52,023 bases of DNA. Origin: an uncultured bacterium (GTDB taxonomy: Bacteria; Patescibacteriota; Gracilibacteria; Absconditabacterales; Absconditicoccaceae). Position 1 is the first letter of the stretch; every line of letters begins with the position of its first letter. Below, one piece after another: positions 1-39,199 of this stretch. A program made the position numbers and the translations under genes. Where the stretch lies: assembly GCA_937862565.1 (NCBI GenBank), contig CALMFT010000039.1:1-52023 (forward strand). Direction: 5' to 3'. The notes under the pieces are model-generated. The model worked only from the letters and a program-made list of their open reading frames with translations, was not told the origin of the DNA and did not search any database.

Positions 1-2159
1 AGGAACAAGAACTGCTATCCCGCTTATCAGGTGAACATAAAATATGAAATAGACAAAGTTTATGATTTTATTATTCACCGTTTCTAATAAGTAGTTTTTT
101 ATCTGAATTTTCAAAAGTCATAGAACCTAAAAATATTCTCGACCCAACAGCTTGATTATGATCAAGTTTACGTATCATATCAGATTCCTTAAATAACAAA
201 ACAAACATTACTGCGATTGAAATTAACCAACAAAATTTAGAAATAGCAAAAGAACGATCAACAAATTTTCCTATAAATTACATTTTATGAGATTCATTAG
301 AAATTTTGTCTAAAATAGAAGAAAAATTTGATTTTATAACGTGAGATTTACCTTGGTGAATAAAGGTTGATAAAAGATATTATAATCTAAATTTAGAATT
401 AGATACAATTATATTATTAATGTCCTTAGATAAATTAAAAGATTGATGATTTGCTATATTTACAAATCCTGATAAATTTTTTCTAAGCGAATATGATAAA
501 ATTAAGGATATTATAAAAGAAAAATGAATATCATTAGTTTGATCTATAAAACTTCCAGCTGGTACGTATTACCCTCAAACATGAATACAAGCAAATATAA
601 TTATCTTTCAAAAAATTAATAAAATCGATAAAGTATTTTTATGAGAGCTCACGGAAAACAATTTGAGTAAATTAATCAAGAATTTCTTTGAAAAAAATTG
701 ATCAAGTGATTTAATTGGTAAATTTATAAATGAAAATGAAAATGAAAAATTTTTACGAGACAGGAAAAAATCCTATGAAAAAATAGATAAGTTACTTACT
801 CAAAAAAAAATTGAAGTTATGGATAAATGCATAATCTCAACAAATGTAAACTTTGAAGATGAAAATGCTGTTTTCGTAACCACTTTCGGTTTCCCTAAGA
901 TTAAACTGAAGTTCAATAATGATGAGATTGAAAAAATAAAAGAAAAGAAATCTAAATATTTCCAGATTATATTGCCAAAAAAATATGATCCAAATATATT
1001 TAAAAATTTTTATAATAGTTCGTTTTGAAAATTATATTTTGGTAGGTTGGTAACTTGAATAATGAGCAACTTAAATTTATTAACTATTAAGGAAGCAGAA
1101 CTTTACTACCCCACGAAAATTTATCTAGAGAAGATACAAAAAACTTTTGAAAAAATGGAGTCTATAAAAAATATCATGTCTGATGTAGACGATACTTTAA
1201 AGGTAGATTTTTTCTCAATAGATCAAGTATATGAAACAATATCTAAAATTAATATCATGTCTGATATCGACTATACGATTGAAGGTTTTCCTACATTAAT
1301 AGCAAAGCAATATAAAGAGTTGATAAATTCAAAAGAAGAAGGTGAATATCAGAATGCACTTGAAATCATAAATAATATTTTCATTACAACGGGAGTTTTT
1401 TGCATTAGCGTAATGCTTTGATGACTTAGTTGAAGCGTAGATTTTATGAGTGAAATTTCAGATGACCTAACTGGGTCAGTCAGAGATTTTACTAAATTAG
1501 GGCTTGGAGACATATATTGTCTTTATTGAAATATTGCTAAAAAAATTAAAACTAAATCAGATGATGATGATGGAGGAAAAGATTTTTTGAAAAGTTTATT
1601 CAGTTTAGACGATATAGCAATACTTAATAAATTAACAAATAAAGAAATATACATATTAATTGATGAATTCTCAAAATTAAGAAATAAATATATATGACAT
1701 AAAGGTAAATTAGACGAAACCATATATAAAGAAATTTTAATTGAAGCTGAAGCCTTATTGAATAAATTTATTTTAAAACTTTCTTGTCTAAAAGAGATAA
1801 AAGTCATTTTATGATCGAATAAAATTAATCGCATAGATGAATATGAATATGAAGTAGTGGTAACTATATTCAATTGATATTCACCTTACTCGGAGAGATT
1901 AATTCTGTTGGAAGCTCCTATATGAGGGAAACTCTATTTTACTATATGATTAAATAAAAAAATCATATCCTTACCTGAATTAATTAGATATGACACAAGT
2001 ACGGAAAATCAAGCAAAAATTTCATATATATACAACAGAGTAGATAAATGAAACATAGAGTATGTAACTTACGAAATAGCAGAAAAAGAAAGAAAGAAAT
2101 ATTATATTTCTGATATTAAAAATCCAATATTACAAAAACTTTTATCTAAACCTGATTAG
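1..2159 (+). CDS. N6-adenine-type DNA methyltransferase with C-terminal HEPN-like region (5' partial)
   Basis: The frame is open from the first bases to TAG at 2157-2159 if TGA is read as Gly, about 718 residues; the start lies outside the window. Near the left edge are a GFYYSP segment and DPTAG (141-155), which match methyltransferase motifs X and I. GDLPWG (342-359) stands where motif IV (N/D-PP-Y/F/W) should be, with Leu for the first Pro. The second half lacks methylase motifs. It contains SKLRNKYIGHKG, with R at 1680-1682 and H at 1698-1700, the R-N-x4-H signature of HEPN ribonucleases. The C-terminal approximately 100 residues look like a beta-rich domain I do not recognise. The gene converges on pycTM. 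It could be a solitary modification enzyme, part of an R-M system continuing to the left, or a methylase-toxin defence protein. The methylase call is firm; the HEPN call rests on a short motif. Confidence 0.75.
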
Positions 2160-2352: not shown

Positions 2353-2823
2353 TTAAATTATAAAAAGAGACATAAAACTTATGATAATTAGTAAAATTAA
2401 AGGGTATACAGAGTACTTAGTATATGTCATTTTTTTATTTGCAATTTCTGCGTTAGTATGAATCTGCTCAAGTATTCATTCTTTAACATCGCTATCACTA
2501 ATTAATAAAATCTTATCTCTAAAAGAACTAAAATCTTTTTTAGCAATAGTTCAGAAATAAAATAGGGAGTCTCTATGTATGTTTTTAAGTCTTGGAGTAA
2601 ACGATAAGTATATAAGAATAAATCAAACTGCAAAAATCAAGGATATAAAAAATATAGTACATATATAATAACATCATAACATCTCTTTGAGAATTTTTAT
2701 ATTTGAAATCCAATATCATAATATACCAACATAAAAAGCCGATATAAATCAGAGTTTACTATCAGCATGTTTAATTCGATCATTGATAATTTGCAATTGA
2801 TCTTTTAATTGATTGATATCCAT
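2353..2823 (-). CDS. pycTM: Pycsar membrane effector, PycTM family (DUF5706-type)
   Basis: 156 residues with ATG start and TAA stop; three TGA codons fall inside hydrophobic segments. The order fits PycTM: an amphipathic N-terminus with the HADSKLGF motif (residues 19-26), two membrane helices (about 24-40 and 52-75), a cytoplasmic segment SLFYFGTIAKKDF (86-98) and EQIHTNAEIANKKMTYTKY (119-137), and a last helice at about 140-156. In Pycsar systems the effector senses cCMP or cUMP and disrupts the inner membrane to stop phage growth. Its start lies 28 bp after the cyclase stop, so the two are likely co-transcribed. The family assignment is from remembered sequence signatures, chiefly ADSK and SLFYFGTIAKK, and I regard it as strong. 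Activity is inferred. Confidence 0.85.
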
Positions 2824-2851
2824 TTATATATTATATTTTTAAAAAATAAAA

Positions 2852-3649
2852 TTAAACATTATCTAGTGCAATTATTGCTCTACAATAATCTTTTCAACAT
2901 TTTTCACACCAAATAGTTTTTAGAACCTTAACTCAATTAAAATCAAATTTCTTATTATTGGTTGTATCATAATCTTCTCGTAAAATCGCCTCTTCAGAAC
3001 ATCAACATGATTTATGTACCAAGTCAGAAGTAGATAAATTATTATAAAATCTATCTGAAACAAAAAGCTCTCAATCATTCGATAATGATGCTAATTTTGC
3101 TGACATATTAATCGGTTTTCATGCTCGAACTTCATTTTTCCTACTATCTCTTCACTCTGAATCTTTCAATCACAATTGTTTTACTAAAACAGTTTTTTGA
3201 TCCATTCACATATGATATCCTATATTAACTTCATTGCTCAACTTTCTATCCACTAAAGGTTTAAATGTTTTTTCTGCAAAAGTTTTAAAAGTAATTGCAG
3301 CAGCGAAAGCTGTATGTATTTTATTGCTACTAAACAATGCAAAAACTCAATCTCACTTGATATCAATATATTCAGCTCACATTTCATGAAATATTCTAAT
3401 TGCAGTACCTGTAAAAAACTCATAAATAGCAGCGGTAGTTTTTTCATGGTGGCTAGAAGCGCTTAGCTCCGTTGATCATCTAATATCAACAAATAACGAA
3501 ATAATGTTCGGAATTTTATACCAACATGTTGTTAAATAGTTACCTCCTGGAACTAGGGTATTACGATTGGTTATGCTAATGGTGCTATGAAAAATTTCTT
3601 TTCTCGCTTCAATGAGATTTGCAATGCTTTCTGGATAGTAATTTGGCAT
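2852..3649 (-). CDS. pycC: Pycsar pyrimidine nucleotide cyclase, PycC family (class III cyclase fold)
   Basis: 265 residues, ATG to TAA, with eleven or more in-frame TGA codons. The cyclase core is clear: SLFVDIRGSTELS (51-63) carries metal ligand Asp55, DIKGDGVFALFS (96-107) carries metal ligand Asp100, and EVRAGKPINMSAKLASLS (173-190) is the second half of the catalytic site. FVSDRFY (196-202) closes the core. The V/WAGKPxNxAAKL wording is typical of PycC rather than of ordinary adenylate cyclases, and the stand-alone small size fits. PycC makes cCMP or cUMP on phage infection to activate the adjacent effector. The C-terminal tail has five cysteines (C215, C217, C248, C251, C256) that could bind zinc. 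The gene lies 35 bp after hsdS on the same strand. The nucleotide used (CTP or UTP) cannot be read from the sequence by eye. Confidence 0.87.
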
Positions 3650-3684: not shown

Positions 3685-4983
3685 TTACATAGCTACCTCT
3701 ACCTGACCATTCATCAACATAGGTAAGAGCCAGTCACGGAGTTCTGAGAGTTTTTTATTTTCTTCTAGAGTTTTTTGTCTTTTTCTCTCTGTATTTTCCA
3801 TGAAATCAAAAAATCCTTTTTTCGTTTGTTGGTTTGGAATTGCTATATAATTAGTGTCTACGAAACTATCAAACAAAAAGTTTTTTATCCCAGATGTTTT
3901 TCCTTCATATCAAAAAAGTATTTTATTGTCATATAATCTATTCCAGAAATAATGAAAATTATGAGTAAGTTCATAATCTTTCAGTGTAAGTGCTTTACAA
4001 AAATTTGAACATATCAAAGGATGATTAAATCTTTCTGATAATGTAGATGAAACATAAGCTATACGACCTGTAGATTGAGTAGGGCTTCCACCTGAAATTT
4101 CTACGATCAGATCGTAAGATTTCAATAATTTATGACCATTCTTTTCAAGAATAAATCTTTTGGGTGGATTACATTCTTCTTTACCATTTAACCCATTTAT
4201 ATCTGCTCCACGAATACAAAAAACTTCTTGTGTATAGTTTCATGTTTCTTCATCTTTTCCCCAATCTCACCCCTTATATTCACTAATCAAATCACCAATT
4301 GTCTTCACCTTCCACCCCATCGGAATATCTCTTTTCAACTCCTCATTCCACACCATCTCACCACCGCTAGACTTATATGGCTTCCCATCTTCATCTGGAA
4401 AATCAAACTGTACAAACCAGTAGTCATACAGTGCCTTTGCTATGGCTTCGAGTTCGGTATTTATTTTGTTGTTGAGTTCTATTTTAGCGTCAAGATCAGA
4501 AAGGATAGAAGCAATTTTTTGCTGATCTTCTTTGTTCTCATGAACCCAAAGTTCTAAATTATCAAAATCTGTTTTATTTAGAATTGGCACAGCAGTGCTT
4601 CCAGTAGATGCATTTCTTAATAATTTATAATTCTTTTTAAAAATATAATACAAATAATCTGAATCATACAAATCATTAACAACAATTGAATTTATTTGTT
4701 GATTAGTGACACAATCAAATTTATTAAGTACTATTTTGCCCATGGCGGAACCTATACAAGTAATCAAAATACTTTTTGGAGGCAATAATTTTGATGATAA
4801 TTTTCTTTTCCCAATGTCTGATAAGTACCTTTCTGATGTATTAATAAATTTATTGCTAAAAGAATCTGAGGGAGTAATAAACATATACTTAAGTCCAAAA
4901 TGATCTGGATAAGACGAAGAAGGCGTATTACCCGTTATAGTTTTACCAAACTGTGAAATTTTCTTTTTTTGTATCTTACTCAT
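3685..4983 (-). CDS. hsdS: Type I restriction-modification specificity subunit HsdS
   Basis: 432 residues. Two target-recognition halves are visible: the first begins KISQFGKTITGNTPSS and ends with the coiled spacer QKIASILSDLDAKIELNNKI; the second begins WKVKTIGDLISEYKG and ends QKTLEENKKLSELRDWLLP. The matching ends of both halves are the conserved helices that fix the spacing of the bipartite DNA target. The YDYWFVQFDFPDEDGKPYKSSGG linker type is typical of HsdS. The start overlaps the hsdM stop by 8 bp, which indicates translational coupling. Within the second half, residues run through TGA at 4267-4269, read as Gly. The protein determines the sequence recognised by both methylation and cleavage complexes. 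Confidence 0.93.
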
Positions 4984-6595
4984 ACTTCAAACTTTTTAGA
5001 TTACTAAAAATCTTCTCTTCTAACACTCTCGATTCTTTGAAATAGTCAGTCAGAGTATTTTCATAATTCTGCATCTTCTGAATAAACTCTTCTGGTGTGA
5101 TATCCGTATATTCTATCTTGATATCAAAATATTGTCCTGCAGAGAAGCTATGATTTTTGGCTATGATCTTATCACGAGTGACTATTACCGAAAGGTTTTC
5201 TATCGCTTTTTTGTTATGAAAAATATCGATTATCTGCTGTTCTTCTTCTGGACTGAGGACTGTTTTTTGATTCTTTCCATCTTTGGCGGTAGTGCCGAGT
5301 TTACTTGCATCCATGAGGACAATATTTGCATCATTATGTTGTTTATCTAAGAAGATCACTGATACATTGGTCCCAGTAGTAGCGAATATGTTACTTGGCA
5401 TACTCACAACTCCTTTGAGCATCTTTTTTTCTATCATCTGTTCCCTGATCTTCTTTTCTATACCGCTCTGAGCAGTAATAAAACCAGTAGGCACAACTAT
5501 TGCTGCTTTCCCTTTACTAGAAAGGGAGTACATAATCTGCTGAATAAAGAGCAAATAGATTGCCATTTTCTCAGGACTTTTTGGGGTTATATTTGGGACT
5601 CAGGCAAAAAATCTTTCATTGGCGTTCGGTAAACTCGCTACTTCATCTTTCCAGTCAGAAAAATCCATCTTAAACGGTGGATTAGATACTATAAAATCCA
5701 TCTTAGTAGTAATATGTTTATTGTGAGTTATAGAGTTACCTTGTATGATATTACTAATAGAATGACTGAGATTATTGAGTATTAGATTCAGACGAAGAAG
5801 ATTTGATGATTTTTGTGAGATATCTTGACTATATATTGAGCATTTACTTGCACCTATTTTACTTGCTATATTCATGAGCAATGTCCCAGATCCAGCAGCA
5901 GGATCATATACTTTTGCATCAATGATATTATCATCTTCTACTAATATTTCTGCCATTACTTTCGCTACTGAGTGCGGAGTATAATACTCTGCATACTTAC
6001 CTCATCAATCTTTGTTGTAATCTTTGATCATATACTCAAAGATCGTAGAGAAAAAATCAAATCCTTCATTAAATATTTCATTAAAATGAAATATAGAATT
6101 GGTAAGTTTATTGACGATAGATTTTGCTACCGTATTGTGCTTAGAACGATCAGAGATAGAACTTTGTATGAGTGATTCTTCAAATAAACGAATCTCTGAA
6201 TTACCATCCGTATGTACCGAAAATATATCATTATTGAGGATAGATATATCATTAAGTGTCTCATCAAATGTCTTTGCAAAATCATCTTTATCTTGTTGAG
6301 AAAAAAGAAAAGGAAGTAGATGCTTTGGTTTCAGATGAGCAGTCTTGGTTCCTATTTCAAACTGTAGTATCCTATTATATTCACTATCAGATAATGCTTC
6401 TAGATCTTTATATTCCTTGAGATCAGGATGTATTTTTTGTATTTCATACAAGAATTTATCACTGATAAATTTGTACAGAAAAGATTGAGTGACGATCTTA
6501 TATTCGTTCGCATCACCTCCCAACCCGTTGTGATTACAAATATTTTTTATGTCATCTACGAGTTGTTTAACTTTTGCATTATAGTCACTAGTCAT
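4976..6595 (-). CDS. hsdM: Type I restriction-modification methyltransferase subunit HsdM
   Basis: 539 residues, a normal HsdM length. The N-terminal helical domain is followed by GKYAEYYTPHSVAKVM, then motif I DPAAGSGTLL (near residue 231), which binds S-adenosylmethionine, and motif IV SNPPF (near residue 303), the N6-adenine catalytic site. Two TGA codons are read as Gly, one in the segment before GKYAEYYTP and one before VPNITPKSPE. The subunit methylates adenine on both strands of the target chosen by HsdS. It starts 26 bp after the hsdR stop and overlaps hsdS. Confidence 0.95.
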
Positions 6596-6621: not shown

Positions 6622-9600
6622 TTAAGCCTCATATTCTAGTATATATTCATTTGCTGTCAGGTCACGAAATTGTTGTAAGACCTCAAAGGTGATAATCTCT
6701 TTATTCATGGGAGATTCATCAATTGCACTGTTGATCATCGGTCAGATATGCTGTTGAAAAAATACTTTATTTTTGAGCAATCATCAATTATTGTTAACTG
6801 CATAGTCTATTTTTTCTTTTGCAAGCATCATAATATTGTATAATGGAATATTATTACTAATAGTCCCAGAGCGTTCTAGTGATTTGAAACTACGAGCATA
6901 TTTTTTATCTCCTTTAAATTTTTGTTCTAATACTTGATTTTTACGATTGAGTTCTTTAATTTTACTGTAGATGTTATGCAATTCACTACTTACAAAGTGC
7001 ATTGTGTCTGATGTATCTTTTGATTCATCAATACTATATTTTGCAAGCAATTCTTTAAATAATTCATACAGCGATAACCACTCTGGATCTTTCTTGTTCC
7101 AATTATTACTTAATTCAACCCTTGTTTTGTGCGCTATATCTTGCAGATCATTTGCAAGCATTTTAAGTTCCTCTTCTCACTTTTTAGAAAAACTAAAGAT
7201 TACATTTTCTATCGCTACGTTAAGAAGTTGTTTACTATCTACATCTTTTACAGCTTCTTGAAGACTAAGTAGACGAAGACGATTATTTACTTCATTGATT
7301 AGTGAAGATAATAACTTGATGTCCAATTGTTCCAATGCTTCAGTATGTCCTATCAAACGAGAAATATTATACAGTTCACGAGCGTGTTCAAGAGCATTCT
7401 TAAGACTAAGGATAGCACTTCTATCTTCAATCGCCGTGATTTGTTCTGAGAAAAGCTCCAGGTTATCAGTAGAATAATCAGATAAAACTGTTGCTATGGC
7501 AACAAGCCCCGATTCAATTTCTTCCTTACTCATAAACAACGAACCAAAAACGTTTTTTCCATCCTCTCCAGTAGAGTCTGTATCGTATTCACGATTGAGT
7601 TCATCAAAATATGCTTTGTTAGTAATATCAAATTCTTTGCTAATATCTGCGAAATCAACAACGTATCAAACACGGAATTCTTTATAAGGTCTATTGACAC
7701 GAGTAAGGGTTTGCAAGAGATTATGTGATTTTATTCTTCTTCATAGATATAGTTTTTTGAGTCTTGGTGCATCAAATCATGTCAGCAGCATGGCATATAC
7801 GAAGAGAATATCTATTTTCCCGTCTTTAAAATCTTGTATTTGTGTTTTTCTTGTTTCTTTATCATTCTCGTCATGCAAGATAAGTGCAGATGATAAATTA
7901 TATTCTGATTTTTTATTCGTTAGCATTACGTGCATTTCTCTTGCTTGTTCTGAACTATCACAAACCACCATTGCTCCTATAGTAGGGTCTCAAAATCTTA
8001 CTCTTGAAGAATTAAAATCATTGGCGATATATTCCACCATCGGTTCTACAAACTTCTTATGAGAATAGAGATCTCTTTTATCTAAACTACCTGACTTAAT
8101 AAGTTCTTTGAGTTCTTTCTGTATTTTTTGCAACCTCTCTCTATAGCTCGTTTCAATCTCTTCACGAAGCAATTTGAGTGTGTATCAGTCTTTGATTGAG
8201 CTATTATAATAATATTTGTGCATATAGTTTCCAAAAATATTTCTTGTGGTTTTGAGATCTGCTTTATCTTCGAGATCAGTTTCTTCATCGTCTATTTTTT
8301 TATGATCATTATACATAATGAGAGGCGTGCCCGTTAGTGCAATTTTTATGGCATCTTTATCTGAATTATAGAGATTTGCCAAGAAACTTCCTTTAGGATC
8401 ATAACTTCTATGGGCTTCATCTACAAAATATATTCTTTGCACCGCAATATCATATCCACTATCATTAAATACTGTAGTATCTTCATTAAATTTTTGAATA
8501 TTAATCACGGTGATTCATTCGTTGCTCGTATTTTTTCTAAAATCCTGCACAAGATCTTGTTTATTATTAACTATATGTACTTTCAATCATCTTTTTCTAA
8601 ACTCTCTTTCTGTCTGTGTTAAAAGATCCAATCTATCAACAACAAAATAAAACTTTGGAACTATTTTCCTCTTACTAAAATAATCAGTTAGATATCTCAC
8701 ACTATAAAATGCAAGTGCTGTTTTCCCACTTCATTGCGTATGCCAGATAATTCATCTCTTTTCTCATTGATTGAGTTGTTGTTCTATTGCCTTCATGGCA
8801 AAAAATTGAGGATATCTCATAATGTGTTTTTGAATCATGAGTTCTCATATTTTGTTGGTCTCATCGATATAAACAAGCGTATATTGTAAGATCATCTGTA
8901 ATCTTGATTTTGTGAAAAGGGATGTCAGAATACGATTCGTTGGTCTGTTTATGTCTTTATTTGTTTTAAATTCAGGAGAATATTTAAGAGTAGAATAATT
9001 AGTATCTTTGAGAATAAAATCTTCTATATCTACGTTAATATCCTGAATATTATCTATGAGCTCACTTTTGAGCTCCTCACGAAAATTATTAAACTTTATG
9101 CTACTATTTCTTGTTGTTGTTGCATAAAATGCTCATTGTAATTGATCAATTCCTGTGTCATCATATTCCATATTATTAGAAAATACAAGTAGTTGTGTAA
9201 TATTGATAAATTTTCTAAAAGCAGAATTTTTAAATCTTGTATTAATTCTATCTCTCTCTGCTCTTATTCCTTCATGATTATTTGGTTTTTTAACTTCAAT
9301 AAAACTCAATGGTAGCCCATTAACAAAAACTGTTATGTCTGGGCGGAATTCATCCTCTCAATTTTTGCATGTGAGTTCTGTGCAGACATGAAAGGTGTTA
9401 TTATTAAAATTATCTCGATCAATGAGCTTGTAGTTAGAGTTTCATTTATTTAATAGACGGTTATAAAATTGTTTTCATAAATCATCTTGTCATAACTCAA
9501 GAGACATATTTTGAAATTCATTTTCAAATACTTTCAGATCATCCTCGCTTTTATCACTCATTTTATTGATTTTGAGAAATTGATCACGAAAAATATTAAT

Positions 9601-9723
9601 CAATATATTAGTTTCTCAATCTATAGTATATGAAGAATCTTTCAGTGAAAAATAAGTATATCCCAATCTTGTAAGATGCAACAATGCGGGTATTTTTACT
9701 CTTGTATCTTCGTTATGAGCCAT
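6622..9723 (-). CDS. hsdR: Type I restriction endonuclease subunit HsdR
   Basis: 1033 residues, ATG at 9721-9723. The N-terminal PD-(D/E)xK nuclease is visible as RPDITVFVNG with Asp129 and SFIEVKKP with Glu143 and Lys145. The translocase motor follows: Walker A HTQGSGKTALAF (near residue 329, its first Gly written TGA), DEAH box YFVDEAHRSYDP (near residue 433), and LTGTPL (motif III). The C-terminal helical part contacts HsdM. The gene is first in the run hsdR-hsdM-hsdS-pycC-pycTM. All frame segments between 9723 and 6622 are in one phase once TGA is read as Gly, so I see no break. The complex translocates and cuts unmethylated DNA. Confidence 0.95.
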
Positions 9724-15149: not shown

Positions 15150-15178
15150 TTGTCAATTTGGATAAATGTTCTTGATAA
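15150..15178 (+). promoter_or_regulatory. Candidate promoter for the alpha-2-macroglobulin/PBP1C genes
   Basis: TTGTCA (15150-15155) and TGATAA (15173-15178) with a 17-bp spacer, about 57 bp before the ATG. Moderate match only. Confidence 0.35.
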
Positions 15179-15234
15179 TGGCGTATGTTTGCATATATCT
15201 GAATCAAAGTTCATCATTATTTTTCATCTTCATT

Positions 15235-18200
15235 ATGCAAAAATTTCTTTCTCTACGTGTATGGTTTTGAATTTTCTTAACTTCTGTTATCCTAGCTTGA
15301 TGCACTGACATGGTAGTACGTCCTAGCGAAACTAATAGTAACTCGGATGTCAAAACTACAATGGCGGTCAGCGAAGATATCGCTCCCACTGTCCTCCGTG
15401 GTTCAACGAAATTGCATATCGATAGCAACAATGTCTGGCTCAATGATGATGGTCTGCAACAGATATTCGTTGATGAGTCTACCTCTTCATGACAGACAAT
15501 ACAAGCAATCATGAACTGGATTGACAGCTACAAACAACCTAACAAATCCAAACAAATCGCGATCAAACAAGTTACTCTCAGCACTCAGTGAAGTACTCTG
15601 AAAATAGTATGATGAAGCGGACTGAAAGAATATATTTCCTCTGTCCATACGCAAGTTTCAGTTTCTGGAGGTGATTTGCTACTATCTGCTAATCCACAAA
15701 GAAATGGAGCAACATCTTATTTGCTAATTTCAAACTCCAATCCCAATAACTATACTATTACAAACGACCAAGATCGATACAATCCTGGTTTATTCATGAT
15801 CAATAAAAATAACTATACTCTGATCAAATTACAACGAAGTTCAGATCTCGAATACGTGAGTTTAAATTATAAAACTGGCGCAAATGACTACCAATTGGAT
15901 ACGCGAAACACACTTTCCATTCCCAAACAAACTCAGATTATTCTTAAATCTGATTATATAAAATCACCATTTACTGCATACTTAATAAATTTTGAAACAG
16001 AAAATAATCAGAATGCTGATGCGAAAAATAATATACTTAATGAAATTGGCTTACAATATAATAAAGGAGTAGTGGAAAATTTAACAACCCAAATATATGG
16101 AATCCAATCCTATAGTAAGCTTACTAATCCAAATTCTAGTGGAGAATACAACTTCACAACAACAAGCTGAGAACGTCAGTGATTATTATTGGTATCGTCA
16201 GCATTTACAAAACTCATTACTTGGACTTCTCCAAAATTTGAACCAAAATTGATTGATGTAGACATTGCTGGAGACTATGAATGAATCATGCCATATGTGA
16301 AGCGTATCGCAACAAATTACCAGATTGATAGTGAAAGCGTAGATCAAAGTCTGATTAAAATACTTGGTACTGGCAATTTTCAATGGAATGATGGCAATCA
16401 GTTTAGTTACAACATACAGCCTAAGCAAACCTACAGTTGAACTATGAATATCAAAACAATATTTGGTGATAGCGAACAATTACCAATTTCTTTTTACATA
16501 GATAGTATCGATCCACGCACTATCGTAAAGCAAATACTTTCCAATACGACCGTTTCTACCCTTGCAAATAGTTGATCATTTCAAGATGTCTTGGTTCAGT
16601 ACAAAAATATTGCAAGTTTCCCAGTGAGTTTTACGCCTTGCACGATAAACATTGCTAACACTTTTGAAAACTTCCAATGACAATGAATGGAGAATAATCT
16701 CTTCGATTGTGATGAAAAAAGTTACACGACTACGGTAAATACTACTGATTTCAAATATCGAAAAGCTTATAGAACTCCAGTCAAGTTACCAGCCAATTTC
16801 CCTACTAGTCAAGCATTCAAGGTTTCAATTCCTGATGCAAGATGAATAGCTCAAGTACATTATTTTTATAAATCTGATATCGGTATCTGGACAAAAGTAG
16901 CTGGAAATCAGCTTCATGTGCGAGGTATGAGATTTGATGACAACAGCGCAATAGAGTCTGGTTATGTTATTCTTTCAGAAATTGGATGAAAACAGATATC
17001 CAAACAAAGCATCCAGGCGACTAAATCAATCATACCTTTACCAAAAGATGCACAAGGCAATCTACCTCAAGAACCACTCTTGTTACAAATAGTGACGGAT
17101 AAATCATCTGCATTTGTTATCGTACATCCTCAATGAAAATGAGTAATTTACAAACAAAAAACTGATAAATCCTACACGATCAATAGCTTTTTGGATCCAA
17201 GCGAAGTTGCTTTATCCAATCAATCACTTGCTGGTGGAAGCGAATACCCTGTGAAAATATATGGTTATAGCGATAGATGACTTTACAAAGCATGAGATTC
17301 AGTATTTTTTGCTGGATTTGTAAGAGATTTGAGAGTTTTTGATAATCTGACTTATCTCAAAGATAAAAAAGTAAGCATCAGCATGACTGATCCCCAAGGT
17401 AATAGTATCTATACTAATACTGGCATTGCACTTGATGAATTTGGTGGTTTCAATGGCTCGATGACTCTAGCAAAATCTATGCCACTGTGAGACGTATTTA
17501 TTTATTATTATCTCAATGGTGATGATCAGGTAAGCTATAGTCAGAACATTAAAGTTGAAGAATATCAAAAGCCTACTTTCTTCGCAGATTTGACTCATGA
17601 AATATTAAAAGATAATCTGAATATAGTAATAGCTCCACAATATTTCTTCGGTCAAGCTCTCAAAAACTATGACATTAAATTTGATCGATCGCTCGCTGGT
17701 AAAGATAGCTGTGCTTACTGCCGATGGTGGAATCAAGATCCTTACTATTACAACTATGTATTCAACGATACTATAAATACAGGATGAGGATTTATGCTGT
17801 ATGGCCAATCAGATCCACAAATCTCAAAATCTCTATTCTCACAAGATATATTACAACAGAAGTGATATCAATACACTCTCAAAGCAACCATGATTATCAA
17901 AGATAATACAAGCGATGAAACACAATTCTTCACAAAATATATAGACTTTTCGCCTGAGGTTAAGCTTGGTCTTAGTGGGCAACCTAGCGAACGACTTTAC
18001 GAAGATGGTGCTAAAGATACTGCAAAAAAATTTACTATTGATTGAGAGATTTCTGCTGGTAAAGATAAGATCGCTGGTCTTCAGTATGAAGTGTATTACC
18101 GAAGTTATGATCAAGAAATGCAAAAAGGTATTGATGGAAGTATGTACTATCTCAATGACCATAATTATCAATTATTGAAATCCTGAAGCATTGATAATCA

Positions 18201-21048
18201 GAAAAATTTTTCGATAAAAAACGATTTTATCAGTAAGCCTGGTAGTTATTTTGTTCGCGTATTTGCTACTGATAGCAAAGGCGCTATCATCGGTGAAGTT
18301 CAAAAACAAATAGAATATTATATTTTCACACAAGATCCTGATGGACTGCTGTGAAGTTTACCAAATAACTACACTCTCACGGTGTCAGTTCCCAAAAAAA
18401 CATACGAAGAAGGAGATCTCATCCCCATAGACATTGCTCCGTATCAAAAATGAGCACGCATAATCATGACTGCAGAAAGAGGAAATCGTATCATAGATAC
18501 AGTGGAAACAGTGCTTGATGGCTCACCACTCACCATGTTGGTCAAACCTTGATATGCTCCAAACATCACCATAAGTGTCATGCAAATGATAGGAACTGAT
18601 AAATCAAGTTGACCAAGAAAGGAACCAAGATTTTTGGTAGGATATGCCGAAGCTGAAATTAGTACTGCAATGCATACTATGCAAATCGATGTAAAATCCG
18701 ACAAAGCAGAATACAAACCTGGGGAATTGGTAAAACTAACAATTAGCACCAAAGATAGTAAGGGAAATCCAGTGGATGCAAGACTTTCATTGTGAGTTAT
18801 AGATCAAGCTTTGATGGCTTTGTACGACAGTATTAGAGAACCAATTCCTTATTTCTTCAATAAACTTGGGTCAAATGTATTCACCTACACCAACATGAAA
18901 CTTCTCTATCAGTCACTCAGAGCATTTGCAAACAATGGAAATAAATGAGGATGAGGAGATGGAGGAAAAGCTATGTTTAGCGTTATTAGAGACGATTTAT
19001 CAGATCTATCGTTCTGGAGATGAGGCTTGTATACTAGTGGAGGAAAGCTCGAAGTAAGTTTTAATCTTCCAGAAAATGTAACTACTTGGGTAGTAGATAT
19101 CATCTGATTTACTAAAGACACCAAACTTGGAACTGCGAGAACCACATTTCAAGCAAATAAAAATCTTATTGTAGAAGCGAATACTCCAACATTTCTTACT
19201 ATTGGGGATTCACTCAATATTCCAGCCAAACTCATAGTCCCAGCTGATAAAGTCAAATGAAATCAGAATATAACACTCTCAGCATTTATTCAAAATGACT
19301 CTGGCGACAAAGTCGAACTTGGAACCTTCAATGCAAAACCAAATACCAAAGTGCTCTTACCGACTACGATTCCCAATACACGACTTTCCAGTAATTCTGT
19401 AAAACTTAGTATCAAAGCAGAATATGGCAATGAAACTGATGCAGTTTTACAAACCATAGTATTGAGAACTGATGGACTTATTGCTAAGGATGCAGTATGA
19501 ATTATAAATACTGAGGGAACTCACGACTTCCAGGCTCCAGAAAATCTCGGAGGAAACATTCACCTTTCATTGAGCCAATTCCCGACAAATCTCATCGATC
19601 CCGCTTTACAATATTTGGTACAGTATCCATACTGATGCACTGAGCAAATCCTTAGTTCACTCTTGCCTCTTCAGAATATTCAAAATCTCATAAAATCATG
19701 AAAGTATTCTAGCAGTCTTTTGAGTTGAGAATATGTACAACTTCCAGATGGTTCATATAAAGTAAAAGATATTCTGACAGATGGAATAGCGAGCCTTATT
19801 TCACATCAACAATCCAATGGATCATTTGGTCGACGAGATGGAAAAGATACTGAAAATTCAGTTCAAAAATACCTACTGAGTGCATATGCGTATGGAGGAT
19901 TACAAGAACTCAAAAATTCTGCATCATCAATCACAAGGATCGAGCAAGTGCTTGCCAGCGCAGAGTCTTACCTTTGGTCAAATCGTACACTCAGCCCTGT
20001 GTGATTCTTGTATTACCTTTCACTCAAAACGAAAATAAACAGTAAGCTGGACCTTGCTGAAATGGATGAACTCAAAAATATCAACCCACAAAAATATCCT
20101 TATGGGTGATTGTTGCGTTATGTCATTGCCGTAAACCAAAAAAATAATGAAGATATGAAATTTTGGAAACCTTATGCGGTTATTCCTACCAATCAAGATC
20201 AACGAACAGACACTTCTATTTTTATCAATCAAACTTCAGCTCTAGCATTAAAGTTACAAGCATTTGCGAAAGACCCAAATACCAATCAAGATGAACGTAT
20301 GCAGGCTTTACAGGCACTGTTGTGAACGAGAAACAAACAAGGTCTACGAGGACAAAGCACACAAAGCAATTCTCAAGTGCTACGTACTCTTGCTACCGTG
20401 GGAGCAAATCGAACTTCCAAAGAGAATGTAAGCTGTGATGCTATGTTAGGAAACCAATACTTTACTGGATTACAAATATTGGCAAACTCAGGCATAAGTT
20501 TAACACAAACTTTACTAAGCACTCAAGCAAAAGTTTCTTGGAAATGTGATAGTCTGATTATAGCAGATTCTTCAATCAATTTCATCCCAAAGACATTGAA
20601 CGATCTTCTTGGAGCGAATACAAATGTTACACAAATGGATTATAACATTAGTAATCTCAAAGCAAAAATAGGTGACCTTGTAGACATCAACGCAAGTCGA
20701 ACTACGACAGTTCCAGGCGAACAAGTTGCCGTGGAAATATTTATACCTAGCACTTATAAATTATTAGAAACAATAGTCAGTAAAAATAATCAGAATGATC
20801 AGGACAATGAATACCCAAACGATGGAAATAATCAGCTTCCGTTCACGGTTTCAGATTCTGAATGTCAACCTAGTCACCGAGAAACAAGATTTGACAGGTT
20901 ATTCCTTTACTACGAAAACCTTCCTGCTATCACTTGTGATATCAGCACACAAGCGCTCAAAGCATACGATGGCACTGGAACAATTATGCCAATGAGAATT
21001 TATGAGATGTATAAATGAACAATCAATGGTAGAAAAGTGATACAATAA
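15235..21048 (+). CDS. Bacterial alpha-2-macroglobulin lipoprotein with thioester motif
   Basis: 1937 residues, the longest gene here. The N-terminus MQKFLSLRVWFGIFLTSVILAGCT is a lipoprotein signal with lipobox LAGC. Family marks include the MG-domain segment YSDRGLYKAGDSVFFAG, ARLSLGVIDQALMALYDS, the LPENVTTWVVDIIGFTKD segment, and the thioester motif YPYGCTEQ with Cys1468 and its Gly written TGA (19633-19635). A helical thioester-domain barrel follows. In bacteria this class traps attacking proteases in the periplasm or at the surface and is commonly encoded with PBP1C, as here. No in-frame TAA or TAG occurs before 21046. The cell plan of CPR bacteria makes surface display likely, but that is inference. 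Confidence 0.93.
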
Positions 21049-21099: not shown

Positions 21100-22722
21100 A
21101 TGCAAAAGAAATACAAAAAAAATGTTATTATTACTCTTATAATCGGGTTTTTTCTGATAATTCTCTATCATATTATTTTTTCTTTTAAACTTCCTACGCC
21201 TGATACTACTCTCATTCCACTACTCAATCAGAAACAACAGTGATATGAAAACTACGATGAGATTCCAAATAACCTGACTCAAGCTCTTGTAGCAGTGGAA
21301 GATAGACGTTTTAGGTATCATCCTTGATTTGATCCTATCGCAATACTGAGAGCTGCGTATCAAACTATTCGAGAAGGGAATATACAAGGCGCTTCGACCA
21401 TAGACCAACAGACCATAAAGCTTACACAAAAACATTTTACAAGATCAATGTCGCGTAAGGTATATGAGATATGGCGAGCTTTCAATCTTCAATTCCACTA
21501 CAGTAAAGACGAAATACTACTCGCTTACGTCAATGCAATCCCCTTTTCTCATGGCATTGTTGGTCGAAAATCTGCCTGCACTATCTACTTGCACAAATCT
21601 TGCGAGCTCCTGAGTGATTCAGAACTCAGTTATCTGATGGCTATTTCACAAATGTGAACCAATCCTTACAAAGAAACAAATACATTACAAATACTCTGAA
21701 AATGATCACGCATTGCCAATCAGCTTATAAAAGAATGACTAATAGAGAGTCGAATTCCATCTTCAATTTCACTAGAGCATTACGAACCAATTGTGGAGCC
21801 AAGAATACAAGACTTTATCATGTCTCAGGATATAGAATCTCAAAAAGTTTTTGATTTTGATTTGTATAAAAATATTGATGGGATCCTTAAAACTACAAAA
21901 AAACTCAGAGATCAATACAATGTTCATGATTGTTGCGTAATAATTTTGGATCGTAATGGGAAGGTAAAAAGCATGAATCTATGTAGTTCACGAGATGATG
22001 AAGCTGGTAAAATAAATGTTTGTCTCAAACCCAGACAAACAGGTTCAGCCATCAAACCATTCTTGTATCTTTTTGCATTCAAGACTTTGGGTCTAATAGC
22101 TAGCGATACCATTATTGATGAAGCAGTAGAATTTGACCTTGGAGATGGCAACATCTATAGTCCCAAAAACTTTGATCTCAAATATCATGGCAAGGTAAGT
22201 TTAGCATTTGCTTTAGGTAACTCTCTCAATGTTCCAGCTATAAAATTGGTACATCAGGTAGGAGTAGCGCCATTCTTGAAATTTCTAAAATTACAGTTAG
22301 CACACTTTGCAAGTGGCATGGATGAAAATAATAAATGATCGGACGATGTGTGACTTTCTGTGGCTTTAGGTACTTATGAAATTACTCCACTTGCTTTTAC
22401 ACAAATCTGGAGATTATTTTTGCTAGGAAATGCTGATTCTGATTATATAAAATATACCAAACAAATTGTTGATATCCTCAGTGATCCACGCAATAAAATT
22501 ACATCATTTGGACAAGATAATTTTTTGGATACTCCAGGTCGAGCTGTAAAAACTGGAACTTCAAGAAAATTTATTGATGGTCGAGTTTGCTGAATACAAT
22601 TACAAAAAGGACTAAGTATGTGTATCTGGATGGGAAATTATAATAATGATGAGATGAAATGACCTAGTGGCGAGGTTGCAAGTTACCTATGGAGACTTGT
22701 TACGCAAGCATTGAATAAATAA
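21100..22722 (+). CDS. PBP1C-like bifunctional peptidoglycan glycosyltransferase/transpeptidase
   Basis: 540 residues. One N-terminal membrane helix (NVIITLIIGFFLIILYHIIF) is followed by the GT51 glycosyltransferase with VAVEDRRFRYHPGFDP and GASTIDQQTIKLTQ. The transpeptidase carries the SxxK motif in TGSAIKPF (Ser316, Lys319), the SxN motif in GNSLN, and KTGTS near the C-terminus. It starts 51 bp after the alpha-2-macroglobulin gene, the same pairing as the yfhM-pbpC pair of Proteobacteria. It lacks the C-terminal BiPBP_C domain of the longer PBP1C proteins. The pairing suggests that the inhibitor guards peptidoglycan repair at breaches. Confidence 0.9.
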
Positions 22723-25047: not shown

Positions 25048-26964
25048 ATGTATATATCTCAACTTAAATTATGGAATTTTAGAAAATTTTGATCAGATGC
25101 TACAGAAATAAATTTAGAAAAAGCTGATTTAACAGTGAATTTTCATAATTGACTAAATCTTTTAGTTGGTCCAAATGATGCAGGGAAGACAGCAATTATT
25201 GATGCTCTTAAAATTGTACTTAAAACATACAGTTCAGAATGGATTAAATTGGAGGAAAATGATTTTTATAATAATGCAAAACATATAAGGATTGAAATTA
25301 TTATCTCTGATCAGTTTAAAGATGGTGATAAAACAGCAGAATGGGCTAGTAATTTTACAGAGTGGTTAAGATTTGATATAGACGGAAATCCTGAATTAAG
25401 ATTAATTTTGGATACCCATAGAGAAGAAAACTGAAAGATAAAACCATATGATATAAAAGCATGAAATGATGAGATAGGATATGCTCTTACAGCAGACGCA
25501 AAAGACTACTTAAAGTCAGTTTATTTGAAGCCATTGAGAGATGCAGAAAATGAGTTAACACCTAAGAGAGGATCAAGATTGTCACAAATTTTATCATGAA
25601 CAAATCAATTTAAAAACCAACTTAATTCTCATCCCTTTAATGAAAATTTTGAAATTTTTTCCGATTTTATTAAAAAATACTTTGAAGATGATGGCGCATG
25701 ATATAATTGAATATCAAAAGAAATTAATTCCTTTTTGGAATCATTTTGAAGACCTGGGGCTCCTATTGTGCCCACAGATAAAATAGATCTTAAATATATA
25801 TTGGAACTACTAAAATTAGCTTATAATGACAAAAAGCCTGGTTTATGAAGCCAAAATCTATTATTTATTGCTACAGAATTATTACATCTTGCAACTTGTC
25901 CTGATGACTCTCTCAAATTGTGATTGATTGAAGAAATTGAGGCACATTTAAACCCTCAAATTCAGTTAAAAGTTATTGAAACATTACAAAAAGAGTCGGA
26001 AGATAAATTATTTCAACTTATATTAACTACCCATAGTCCGAACCTCTCATCAAAAGTAAAACTTAAAAACTTAATTCTTTGTAATAATTGATGAGCTTTT
26101 AATTTATGATCCAAAGAAACTATAGATAACCTAGAAGACAAGTATACAAAATTAATGAAAACAGATTATCAGTTTTTGGAAAGATTTTTGGATGTTACAA
26201 AATCCAACTTATTCTTTTCAAGATGACTAATTTTAACTGAAGGATGGTGAGAAGAATTATTATTACCAATTCTAGCGGAAAAACTTGGGGTTATGGAAAA
26301 ACAATCAAAAGATAAGTATAATTTAACAAAAAAATGAGTCAGCATTATTAATGTATGAAATACTGCTTACATGAGATACGCAAAAATATTTTGAAGACAG
26401 CAACCCCTTGAGGATATAGGTATAAAAATATCAGTTATTAACGATTTGGATGTTCAACCTAAAGACACAGAGGGAGATGGAGAAATTAAAAGATTAAAAA
26501 AAGAAGAGCTAATAAATGCTATTTGATCTAGTAATATAAAACCTTTCATCTCACCTAGTTGGACTTTAGAATATTGTCTTGCTACTTCAAATGTATTTAA
26601 AAAAGTACTCATAAGAGCTATAATTGCGGCACAAAAAGAAGAAAAACTTCATGATTATGAGTATTGAAAATTAAAACAGGAATCAATAACATTAGATAAT
26701 ATTGATTACGAAAAATTTGAAAGTTCACCAATTGAGATATATTTACAAATTTCTGAAGGGAAACCAATAAGTTATCAAGAAAATGGTAAAACTAAAAGTC
26801 TTTATTCTTCTAAAGTTTCAAAGTCGATCCTTGCACAAAATTTAGCAAAACTGCTAGAGGAAGAAGATGAAGATTTCTTTCTTGAATTACAGAAGGAAAT
26901 AAACTCAAGTCCTACTCATTGATTAAAATATTTATTTGACGCTATAAAACATGCTTGCTGATAA
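25048..26964 (+). CDS. gajA: OLD-family ATPase/TOPRIM nuclease, Gabija GajA-like
   Basis: 638 residues. The N-terminal ABC-type ATPase has FRKFGSDATEINL, Walker A GPNDAGKT (41-48), and LIEEIEAHLNPQIQ (Walker B region) with LTTHSPNLSS (switch His). The C-terminal TOPRIM domain starts at LILTEGWGEELLLPILAEKLG with the conserved Glu and continues with SVINDLDVQPKD, the DxD metal site. This is OLD class 2 architecture, in which the nuclease is encoded beside a UvrD-like helicase. In Gabija GajA nicks DNA when nucleotide levels fall during phage infection. The gene overlaps the helicase gene by 14 bp. Gly is frequently TGA, so it is adapted to the host code. Another OLD/UvrD system cannot be excluded. 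Confidence 0.85.
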
Positions 26965-29004
26965 ATTACACAATAGCTTCGAAGAAGATTTTTTATATGC
27001 ACAAAAACTTTTGTTAAAAGAAGGGCAATACTTTAATGACGAAAGAAAAATATTTATTTGCGACTTTGAGAATTCTTTTGATGTACAGGCTGTACCATGA
27101 AGCGGAAAGACAACTGCTTTATTGGCAAAATTAATTATTTTAGAAAAAAATATTAATAAACTAGAAGGTGGGGTACTGATTTTATCTCATACTAATAAAG
27201 CAATAGATAATATAAAAAATAGACTTTGATGATTATGTCCTCAATTAATTTCTTCTAAAAAAAATTTTGTTGGGACAGTACAAAATTTTGTAAATGACTT
27301 TTTAGCAAAACCCTACTATGGCTCTAGTACATGAAAAAAAATACAAAGCATTGATGATGATTATCGAGTATATAAACTTAAATCACAAATTGGGAGCAAA
27401 TATTATGAGGGATTAGATTCAAAATATTGCAAATACCTAAATATAGGAATAAAAGATGATGAACATTTAGCATGGGAAGTAAATATATGAGAAGATACAG
27501 ACACTTATAAAAAAGTTTTGGAAGCATATAAAAAATTAGAGTCAGAGAGTATATTTCGTTTTAAAGATATGTTTGATTTTTGAAATCAATATATTAAAAA
27601 TCATCCTTTAATTATAAAAATTTTACAAAAGCGCTTTAAGTACATTTTTGTAGATGAAACTCAAGACTTGGAGCCTCATCAGCTTAATATATTGTTGCAA
27701 ATATTTGATAACTCTGATAGCTTAATACAAAAAATTTGAGATATTAATCAATCAATTTTTCATGAATGATCTAATGAGGATCTTGAATCTCTATGGATTC
27801 AAAAAGATTATAAACAAACAGGAAAACCTTATTTTATTTCCTGATCACATCGTCTACCTAATAGAATTGCTAATATTACTAATATGTTCCAAAAAGATGA
27901 AACATTAGAAAAAATTATATGAAATGACTGTGCAAATGAGGAACTCGAGCCTAAATCAACAATTTGTATTTTTAAAAAATGAAAAGAAAAAGAAGTTATA
28001 GTATGGTTTATTAATAAGTTAAAAGAAAAATGATTTGTGGGCAATTACAATGAAAAAGAAATGAAAGTAATTGGGGATGAACATAACGAAGAAGTAAAAT
28101 TACGATATAGTGCAATTGCACGAACTACTAAAAATAAAATTGAAGAAGATATTGAAAAAAATAAAATAAAGAGGGAAGAAGGCGAAGACGCTAAAGAATT
28201 AACTACTCGATGTATGAAGCATTATTTTGAAAGTTTTTCTAAAAAATCTATAAAAGAAAGAAGAAGATCAATAGAATTTTTTGACACAATCCTTTGATAT
28301 GTGATGAATTTTGATCCTGTAGAACCCTGACTCACACAAATCAGAAAAATGATTTTATACAGTATGTATCGCCCCATCAAAGGAACTAAAGTAAAAACTA
28401 TTCAGTGAGAGAAAGAAATTAGTGGGGTAAATTTTTTATTAGAAATAATAAAAATTATAGACAATGAAAAGTTTAAGAAATTTAAGAAAACTATATATAA
28501 AATTGCTTGCAATATAAAAAATGCTAAAAATACATCTGATCTTGTAACTCAAAAAGACAGTATATATAATTTATTTATTTGATTATTAGACTTCTTAGCA
28601 ATAAATAGATCGGTCATACCAACTAATTATAACTCTAGTACTTTATCTAATAGAGAGTTAAAAAACTCACACAGTAATGAAAAAAAAAATTATCATCAAG
28701 ATGGATACTATCTTAACTTTGATTCTATACATGGAGCAAAAGGGCAAGATCATGAAGCAACAATATATTTGATGACCAATTATCATAAGGAAGACTTTAA
28801 ATATTTTATAGATATAATTAAAGATCCGAAAAAATCATCCAAAAAAAACGTCATAATGGAGCAAAAAAAATATTTTATGTATGATTTAGCCGTGCAAAAA
28901 AATGGTTATGTTATGCTGTTTGCGATGATTGTATTATTGAAGAAGATGAACTACTACTAGAATCTTATGGACGAGAGATAAATAAAGATTTAACTATAGA
29001 GTAG
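26951..29004 (+). CDS. gajB: UvrD/Rep-like helicase, Gabija GajB-like, with -1 frame break near 28841
   Basis: The ATG overlaps the end of gajA. Helicase motifs are in order: Walker A QAVPGSGKTTALL (46-58), FVDETQDLEPHQ (motif II), IGDINQSIF (motif III), SGSHRLPNRI, and SIHGAKGQDHEATIYL (motif V). In the starting frame translation ends at 28958-28960 without motif VI. In the -1 frame the sequence reads KIFYVGFSRAKKWLCYAV, a clear motif VI, then a short acidic tail to TAG at 29002-29004. The frames meet in eight A at 28841-28848; one extra A, or a -1 slip, joins them into about 684 residues. This is longer than usual GajB (about 500). It may be a sequencing error, a phase-variable tract or programmed slippage. 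Confidence 0.78.
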
Positions 29005-38972: not shown

Positions 38973-38998
38973 ACAATTAAAAAGATAATTAAATAAAA

Positions 38999-39199
38999 TT
39001 ATGCTTGTAAGATAAAGTCCATCTCAGCGAGATCGGCTTTCAATCCTTGGATATCGATTTGTGAGTCAGAAGACATAGTTAGTGTTCACTTTTCAACATC
39101 TACTTGAGAGTCTTTTCCATAATTATTTGCAATTCTTTCTACATTTCTTTTACATCCACCGCAGTGCATTCCTGTTACTTTGTAAGTTTGTGTTGTCAT
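38999..39199 (-). CDS. copZ: Copper chaperone CopZ (HMA)
   Basis: 66 residues, the normal length of CopZ. TYKVTGMHCGGCKRNVERI has the copper-binding Cys13 and Cys16, with the usual beta-alpha-beta-beta-alpha-beta order. It delivers Cu(I) to CopA. It lies 31 bp after csoR. Confidence 0.92.

What the first reader, a model, noticed from the sequence alone, without database searches (positions are those of the whole stretch)
2353..3649. Pycsar antiphage system written in code 25 (UGA = Gly)
The two adjacent genes carry the class III cyclase core (FVDIRGST, KGDGVFALF, AGKPINMSAKL) and the PycTM marks (ADSK, SLFYFGTIAKK). Both are broken by many TGA codons, so standard-code gene calling would miss them: no substantial frame survives in either gene. 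A cyclic-pyrimidine immune system in an ultra-small recoded CPR bacterium is, to my knowledge, not described.
Basis: partly seen in the sequence, partly recalled or inferred. Interest (0 to 1): 0.92.

Follow-up and report, generated by a model that had tools for sequence, protein, structure and literature searches.

The report
Pycsar phage defence, alternative genetic code
Two genes that look broken under the normal genetic code are, when UGA is read as glycine, an intact-looking Pycsar anti-phage alarm system beside restriction-modification genes in a Gracilibacteria-type bacterium; the system is known, while the host and setting seem not to have been reported.

Summary
Window 2852-3649 (-) and 2353-2823 (-) are open only in code 25 (12 and 6 TGA); table 11 lists no in-frame ORF of 60 aa. 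The first protein is a clade-D-like Pycsar cyclase: PADLOC PycC 3e-94; best solved relative the Anabaena uridylate cyclase 8jsz (3e-66); model TM 0.87 to it, 0.59 to ordinary cyclases. Metal Asps, published UTP-specificity residues and a zinc site (Cys4 for Cys3His) are present. The second passes the PycTM cut-off. TGA columns are Gly in 161 of 249 cells of 22 relatives, Trp in none; release factor 2 was not found; two UCA tRNAs resemble tRNA-Gly. PycC occurs in 8 of 353 class genomes, four of them with TGA inside. Three code-25 PycCs form one clade; a fourth is separate. In two of four code-25 loci the pair is contiguous with type I restriction genes, and here its TGA share exceeds that of 23 other ORFs counted, suggesting transfer among recoded bacteria. 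No held paper pairs Pycsar with Patescibacteria, Parcubacteria, Gracilibacteria or Candidate Phyla Radiation. Activity is inferred.

The parts
2852..3649 (-). pycC: clade-D-like pyrimidine (uridylate) cyclase, 265 aa in code 25 (12 TGA = Gly)
   Evidence: reading; PDLC00763 3.1e-94; 8jsz 3.3e-66; model pLDDT 89.2; TM 0.87 to 8jsz; active-site and zinc residues
2353..2823 (-). pycTM: Pycsar membrane effector, 156 aa in code 25 (6 TGA = Gly)
   Evidence: PF18967 39 bits, cut-off 27.2; PDLC02364 1.6e-26; all-helical model, pLDDT 93.4; hydrophobic windows
3685..4983 (-). hsdS, type I RM specificity subunit; 35 bp upstream of pycC, same strand (operon context)
   Evidence: PDLC03068 3.5e-83; gaps
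4976..6595 (-). hsdM, type I RM methyltransferase; overlaps hsdS by 8 bp (operon context)
   Evidence: PDLC03033 1e-241
6622..9723 (-). hsdR, type I restriction subunit; 26 bp upstream of hsdM (operon context)
   Evidence: PDLC03048 1.9e-43

Best explanation
A two-gene Pycsar abortive-infection system of a code-25 bacterium of the Gracilibacteria class, at the end of a five-gene same-strand run hsdR-hsdM-hsdS-pycC-pycTM. On phage infection the cyclase (class III fold, two metal-binding Asp, head-to-tail dimer by analogy with AnPycC) would turn UTP into cyclic UMP; cyclic UMP would activate PycTM, which would damage the cell membrane and stop growth before phage release. Restriction would act first and Pycsar as the second line. 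Shown here: gene structure, code, family membership by sequence and fold, conserved active-site, specificity and zinc residues, purifying selection on pycC, gene layout. Inferred: the product is cUMP, PycTM is the receptor, the outcome is abortive infection, the five genes are one transcript, and the pair reached this genome from another code-25 lineage.
For: Profile hits; nearest solved structure a proven uridylate cyclase and TM 0.87 to it. D55/D100 = AnPycC D62/D106; F53/K98/F103 = AnPycC F60/K104/F109, reported as important for cUMP production; zinc ligands C215, C217, C248 as in AnPycC, with C251 for H263. A PycTM profile finds the same 8 of 353 class genomes as the PycC profile; six of the eight are rows of that PycTM profile, so the informative part is that the other two PycC genomes (G616, G198) are found too and no further genome is. 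PycTM lies near PycC in 26 of 30 distinct loci. Code 25: release factor 2 over cut-off in G493 only, not in G000, G446 or G393; two 74-base UCA tRNAs with tRNA-Gly-like ends; TGA at conserved Gly. dN/dS about 0.25. AnPycC with AnPycTM protects E. coli from phage T2 (PMC11224242, Results part 1).
Against: No activity data. The residue equivalent to AnPycC K64 is R57, variable in the family. The window's PycTM is only 27% identical to that of G446, no solved structure matches its fold at E of 0.001 or better, and nothing read here says how PycTM binds the nucleotide. Pycsar is rare in the class (8 of 353). The pair lies about 2.3 kb from a contig end in a genome with 3.84% estimated contamination. 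The window has one cyclase gene only, and the fourth zinc ligand differs from AnPycC.
Confidence: 0.87

Rival explanations
1. An ordinary class III adenylate or guanylate cyclase beside an unrelated small membrane protein, used for house-keeping signalling.
For: Shares the class III fold and metal Asps; Pfam Guanylate_cyc gives a weak hit (17.9 bits); Foldseek also matches adenylyl and guanylyl cyclases, TM up to 0.59 among the 50 rows shown.
Against: Ordinary cyclases are far weaker in sequence (3r5g 0.0054 against 8jsz 3.3e-66). The Asn-xxx-Arg pair visible in CyaB is Asn181-xxx-Lys185 here, as in the two PycC structures aligned and in 22 of 25 relatives (Leu in 3). The partner is over the PycTM cut-off.
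Confidence: 0.05
2. A Pycsar pair that makes cCMP instead of cUMP.
For: The substrate of this protein was not measured.
Against: According to PMC11224242 only clade E makes cCMP; the specificity residues here match the cUMP-making AnPycC (F, K, F), not EaPycC (F100, R142, Q144); the clade E structure 8jsf ranks far lower (E 1.8e-9).
Confidence: 0.05
3. Dead or decaying genes whose TGA codons are real stops.
For: Both genes are broken by TGA under table 11; G554's pycC has a frameshift.
Against: dN 0.28 against dS 1.14 under code 25, and 9 Gly positions are TGA in both window and G446; TGA falls on conserved Gly; 27 of 31 ORFs counted on the contig hold at least one TGA.
Confidence: 0.02
4. The Pycsar pair is a dedicated guard of the type I restriction system, released when a phage inhibits restriction, in the manner of the PrrC anticodon nuclease in EcoprrI (recalled). 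This is an addition to the best explanation, not its opposite.
For: The pair is contiguous with hsd genes in two code-25 genomes with divergent cyclases (33% identity) and different gene orders: after hsdS in the window, between hsdS and hsdR in G571.
Against: Only 2 of 30 distinct loci have type I hsd genes contiguous, found with profiles built from those two loci only; the Fisher value of 0.014 for code-25 loci is post hoc on four loci; other restriction or methylase genes also occur near Pycsar, as expected of defence islands.
Confidence: 0.15

Closest known systems
Anabaena Pycsar (AnPycC, PDB 8jsz, with AnPycTM), clade D
   Same: Cyclase homology (53% to the aligned part), same fold (TM 0.87), same metal and UTP-specificity residues and three of four zinc ligands; PycTM as effector.
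   Different: Fourth zinc ligand Cys instead of His; genes written with UGA = Gly; contiguous with hsdRMS. The surroundings of AnPycsar were not looked at.
Burkholderia cepacia PycC (7r65), clade B
   Same: Pycsar cyclase core; TM 0.76.
   Different: Weak sequence match (3.6e-6); other base-recognition residues (Y50, D94, R97; PMC11224242).
G446 and G554 Pycsar loci in code 25 (G554 = JAQUWS010000046.1, Candidatus Gracilibacteria STD2_196)
   Same: Same PycC clade (100/99), 13 and 18 TGA codons, PycTM next door.
   Different: Beside an S24/LexA-type gene, not hsd; G554's cyclase gene is frameshifted.
G571 Pycsar locus in code 25
   Same: Code 25; PycC-PycTM contiguous with type I RM genes.
   Different: Another PycC branch, with CPR sequences (99/96); pair lies between hsdS and hsdR, with a Bro-N gene between hsdM and hsdS.
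Type I RM operons with an embedded anticodon nuclease (PrrC/EcoprrI; recalled)
   Same: A second-line cell-suicide gene inside an hsd operon.
   Different: Effector chemistry is unrelated; coupling to restriction is untested here.

Membership tests
Pycsar cyclase (PycC) | Profile membership above other cyclases | tested here: met
   All 12 PADLOC hits at E up to 1 are PycC models, best 3.1e-94; Pfam Guanylate_cyc below cut-off
Pycsar cyclase (PycC) | Two metal-binding Asp of class III cyclases | tested here: met
   D55 and D100, same in 25 of 25 rows
Pycsar cyclase (PycC), clade D | UTP-specificity residues F60, K104, F109 (PMC11224242) | tested here: met
   F53, K98, F103 in the aligned positions
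Pycsar cyclase (PycC), clade D | C-terminal zinc site C221, C223, C260, H263 | tested here: inconclusive
   C215, C217, C248 present; H263 is C251, as in 6 of 25 rows (19 have H). Four ligands remain, but zinc binding was not shown
Pycsar cyclase (PycC) | Fold of solved PycC | tested here: met
   TM 0.87 to 8jsz, 0.76 to 7r65, 0.59 to CyaB
Pycsar cyclase (PycC) | Makes cUMP or cCMP | not testable with these tools
   Needs purified enzyme and LC-MS
Pycsar effector (PycTM) | PF18967 / PADLOC PycTM membership | tested here: met
   39 bits, cut-off 27.2; PDLC02364 1.6e-26, models named Effector/2TM weaker, best 7.2e-17
Pycsar effector (PycTM) | Membrane protein | tested here: met
   Hydrophobic 19-residue windows over 1.6 starting at 47-61 and 135-138; all-helical model. 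Sequence-based only
Pycsar system | Cyclase and effector adjacent and co-occurring | tested here: met
   28 bp apart; the same 8 of 353 genomes by both profiles, six of the eight being rows of the PycTM profile
Pycsar system | Antiphage activity | not testable with these tools
   Needs a phage challenge
Genetic code 25 | UGA read as Gly, release factor 2 absent, tRNA-Gly(UCA) present | tested here: met
   TGA columns; no release factor 2 over cut-off in G000, 93% complete; two UCA tRNAs of 74 bases, named SeC by ARAGORN, with Gly-like ends. Charging with Gly is inferred

The most novel reading that the evidence does not exclude
Recoded bacteria share a defence-gene pool that is locked to their code: Pycsar (and Gabija) genes dense in UGA-Gly pass between code-25 lineages and cannot work in standard-code hosts; within that pool Pycsar has been built into type I restriction operons at least twice, as a fail-safe that fires when restriction is defeated.
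Probability: 0.2. Interest if true: 0.78.

Novelty: new member of a known kind. Interest (0 to 1): 0.52.

Why it matters
It extends cyclic-pyrimidine immunity to genome-reduced, recoded bacteria, where one might not expect suicide defence. Because UGA-dense genes should not be readable in standard-code hosts, such loci give a direct way to ask whether an altered code restricts the flow of immune genes as well as of phages. A practical point: defence surveys that call genes with table 11 would miss these two genes.

Tried and rejected
Ordinary adenylate cyclase: rejected on sequence, fold and the Asn-xxx-Lys pair. UGA = Trp: rejected, 0 Trp in 249 cells. Decayed genes: rejected.

A prediction that did not generalise: type I hsd genes contiguous with Pycsar occur in 2 of 30 distinct loci only. 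L086 has an N6/Eco57I-type methylase near by that matches the HsdM profile weakly (17.7 bits; Pfam) and was not counted. Of the 13 plasmid records, which are outside the 30, two were viewed: no type I genes are annotated near; the second has type IIL and ISP-type restriction genes. S24/LexA-type genes lie within about 340 bp of pycC in 6 of 30 loci (L009, L058, L077, L085, L086, L087; Pfam confirms five of the six, L077 rests on BLAST and a two-row profile), but none was found in the window, so this cannot explain the window's regulation.

Led nowhere: PDB fold search with the PycTM model (0 of 264 matches at E of 0.001 or better); promoter/terminator scan (43 promoter-like sites against 46.1 in shuffles; 7 terminator-like sites against 2.1, none on the minus strand between 2300 and 3700); NCBIfam (no hit near a cut-off); viral contigs (one relative, L091); phages (one weak relative); plasmids (13 actinobacterial records at 24-30% identity).

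Against a simple story: G393, in the window's own family and with 11 TGA in its release-factor gene, carries a divergent pyc pair without internal TGA; it may be a recent import or a misbinned contig. hsdS and hsdM in the window are poor in TGA (0.11, 0.14), unlike hsdR (0.53) and the pyc pair, so the operon looks mosaic. The high TGA share goes with low G+C, which alone could explain part of it; one non-defence ORF (37830-39089) reaches 0.56.

Rows dropped: the PycC alignment A3 and tree leave out the remote L059, L060, L108, L109, duplicate fetches (L010-L013 repeat L088, L089, L083, L087; L079 repeats L058) and the short overlapping fetches; G554 enters the tree by its N-terminal piece only. 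The 23 'other' ORFs were picked by me from the ORF list.

Full report
WHAT IS THERE. In the window, two ORFs run on the minus strand at 2852-3649 (265 aa) and 2353-2823 (156 aa) when TGA is read as Gly. They hold 12 and 6 TGA codons and end in TAA. Under table 11 no in-frame ORF of 60 aa is listed in either. They are 28 bp apart and follow hsdS by 35 bp; hsdS overlaps hsdM by 8 bp and hsdM follows hsdR by 26 bp, all on one strand. PADLOC profiles name the three upstream genes as type I specificity, methyltransferase and restriction subunits.

FAMILY. The first protein hits 12 PADLOC models, all PycC, best 3.1e-94. Among solved structures, phmmer gives 8jsz (uridylate cyclase) 3.3e-66, 7r65 3.6e-6, CyaB 3r5g 0.0054. 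Pfam Guanylate_cyc is below its cut-off (17.9 against 21.9 bits). AlphaFold2 on 25 aligned homologues gave mean pLDDT 89.2; Foldseek ranks 8jsz first (E 2.1e-30, TM 0.87), then 7r65 (0.76); the next, the adenylyl cyclase CyaB, has TM 0.59. The second protein passes the PycTM cut-off in Pfam (39 against 27.2 bits) and hits PADLOC PycTM at 1.6e-26; models named Effector/2TM are weaker, best 7.2e-17.

ACTIVE SITE. PMC11224242 (read: Introduction, part 1 of 3 of Results, Discussion) describes AnPycC, the clade D enzyme: catalytic D62 and D106; F60, K104 and F109 important for cUMP production; zinc ligands C221, C223, C260, H263, of which the three Cys were mutated together with loss of cUMP production and phage resistance. 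That 8jsz is this enzyme follows from its title (uridylate cyclase from Anabaena sp.). In the alignment, where the chain is numbered one ahead of the paper, these residues are D55, D100, F53, K98, F103, C215, C217, C248 and C251 in the window protein: all kept but the last zinc ligand, Cys for His, as in 6 of 25 rows. The Asn-xxx-Arg of CyaB is Asn181-xxx-Lys185 here (Lys in 22 of 25, Leu in 3). That this Arg is the usual transition-state residue of class III cyclases is recalled.

CODE. At the 12 TGA columns, 22 relatives read with table 11 have Gly in 161 of 249 non-gap cells and Trp in 0; at other columns Gly is 159 of 5341. The fit is not perfect: at position 239 most relatives have Lys, at 58 Asn. 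G000, G446 and G393 have no release factor 2 over the cut-off, G493 does. G000 has two UCA tRNAs of 74 bases (ARAGORN calls them SeC; 30 of the 60 tRNA places were fetched and scanned with their flanks) whose ends, GCG... and ...CGCT, are those of its tRNA-Gly(UCC). On the contig, 27 of 31 ORFs counted hold at least one TGA, and on another contig of G000 the Obg and release-factor genes hold 4 and 1. TGA reading is thus a property of the genome and not a local defect.

LINEAGE AND DISTRIBUTION. PycC at E of 1e-10 or better: 8 of 353 genomes of the class, four with TGA inside (G000, G446, G554, G571) and four without (G393, G493, G616, G198). A PycTM profile finds the same 8 of 353; six of these are rows of that profile, G616 and G198 are not. 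In a sample of the phylum, 6 of 379 by the PycC profile and 3 of 379 by the single protein at 1e-6; 4 of 192 relatives by the single protein. The PycC control rings in 1 of 14 named genomes, Methanosarcina acetivorans. Named CPR records with a PycC read in the standard code include Yanofskybacteria, Nomurabacteria, Magasanikbacteria, Parcubacteria and Saccharibacteria, each with a PycTM-like neighbour.

EVOLUTION. In a tree of 27 rows, window, G446 and G554 PycCs form a clade (100/99); G571, also code 25, falls among CPR sequences (99/96); the tree needs two changes of the label. Window and G446 pycC differ by dN 0.28, dS 1.14 and share 9 TGA-TGA glycines. The pyc pair uses TGA for 18 of 23 glycines, against 233 of 852 in 23 other ORFs of the contig that I picked from the ORF list (Fisher 8e-7); seven G446 genes counted range from 0.56 to 1.0. 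This fits arrival from a more UGA-rich code-25 lineage; low G+C is a confounder. The Gabija-like genes (0.58, 0.46), hsdR (0.53) and the MTase-like ORF at the contig edge (0.63) are also UGA-rich, hsdS and hsdM are not.

SETTING. In G571 the order is hsdM, Bro-N, hsdS, pycC, pycTM, hsdR with gaps of 24, 24, 6, 9 and 17 bp (coordinates; identities). The cyclases of window and G571 are 33% identical and on different branches, so two independent insertions beside hsdS are likely. Among 30 distinct PycC loci read here, PycTM is near in 26 (not found in L080, L081, L082, L108; six of the 26 are rows of the profile used), type I hsd genes are contiguous in 2, an S24/LexA-type gene is adjacent in 6. 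Several of these loci are cut by contig ends and the hsd and S24 profiles had two rows each, so these are lower bounds.

MECHANISM. By analogy with AnPycsar (PMC11224242) the cyclase makes cUMP on infection and PycTM then breaks the membrane. The trigger is unknown. CapW and CapH/CapP, DNA-damage-responsive regulators, are reported beside immune operons including Pycsar (PMC13373217, passages). They were not searched for here; S24-type genes were, and BLAST and a two-row profile found none in the window.

NOVELTY. No held paper has both Pycsar and Patescibacteria, Parcubacteria, Gracilibacteria or Candidate Phyla Radiation. Of the 14 listed for Pycsar and type I restriction only passages of PMC13373217 were seen, the rest as listings. 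In a study of CRISPR-Cas in Gracilibacteria, Absconditabacteria and Saccharibacteria (PMC10746230, passages) the word 'abortive' does not occur. The founding Pycsar paper of 2021 (recalled) is not held. Most subscription papers are not in the library, so a report elsewhere cannot be excluded. The system itself is known; host, code and operon setting are what seems new. I score it as a well-supported new member, of middling interest, with a bolder reading (code-locked immune pool, restriction-coupled Pycsar) still open.

Noticed in passing
window 25048-26964 (+) and 26951-28960 (+): Gabija-like pair in code 25: GajA 3.7e-180, GajB 1.4e-107 in PADLOC, with 22 and 16 TGA codons.
   Followed up: partly
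window 3-2159 (+): DNA-methyltransferase-like ORF (PADLOC mad2 4.8e-26) running off the contig start, 26 TGA, convergent with the Pycsar operon.
   Followed up: partly
L009, L058 (= L079), L077, L085, L086, L087 (= L013): An S24/LexA-type gene lies within about 340 bp of pycC in these loci, five from CPR-type records and one (L077) of unnamed phylum: a possible DNA-damage switch for Pycsar.
   Followed up: partly
L077, L078, L080, L081, L082, L083, L087: A second, divergent PycC-like gene (about 20-32% identity to the references) beside the first cyclase; its role is unclear.
   Followed up: no
L070 10797-13874: PycTM-PycC pair overlapped by a DUF1156/D12 methylase gene in a Thermoanaerobaculia MAG.
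   Followed up: no
L057 5845-6663: Bro-N domain gene between hsdM and hsdS of the G571 RM-Pycsar operon.
   Followed up: no
L011 10317-11680 (G393): Divergent Pycsar pair without internal TGA in a genome whose release-factor gene has 11 TGA: recent import or misbinned contig.
   Followed up: no
window 15166-21048 and 21100-22722: Alpha-2-macroglobulin-like protein followed by a transglycosylase.
   Followed up: no
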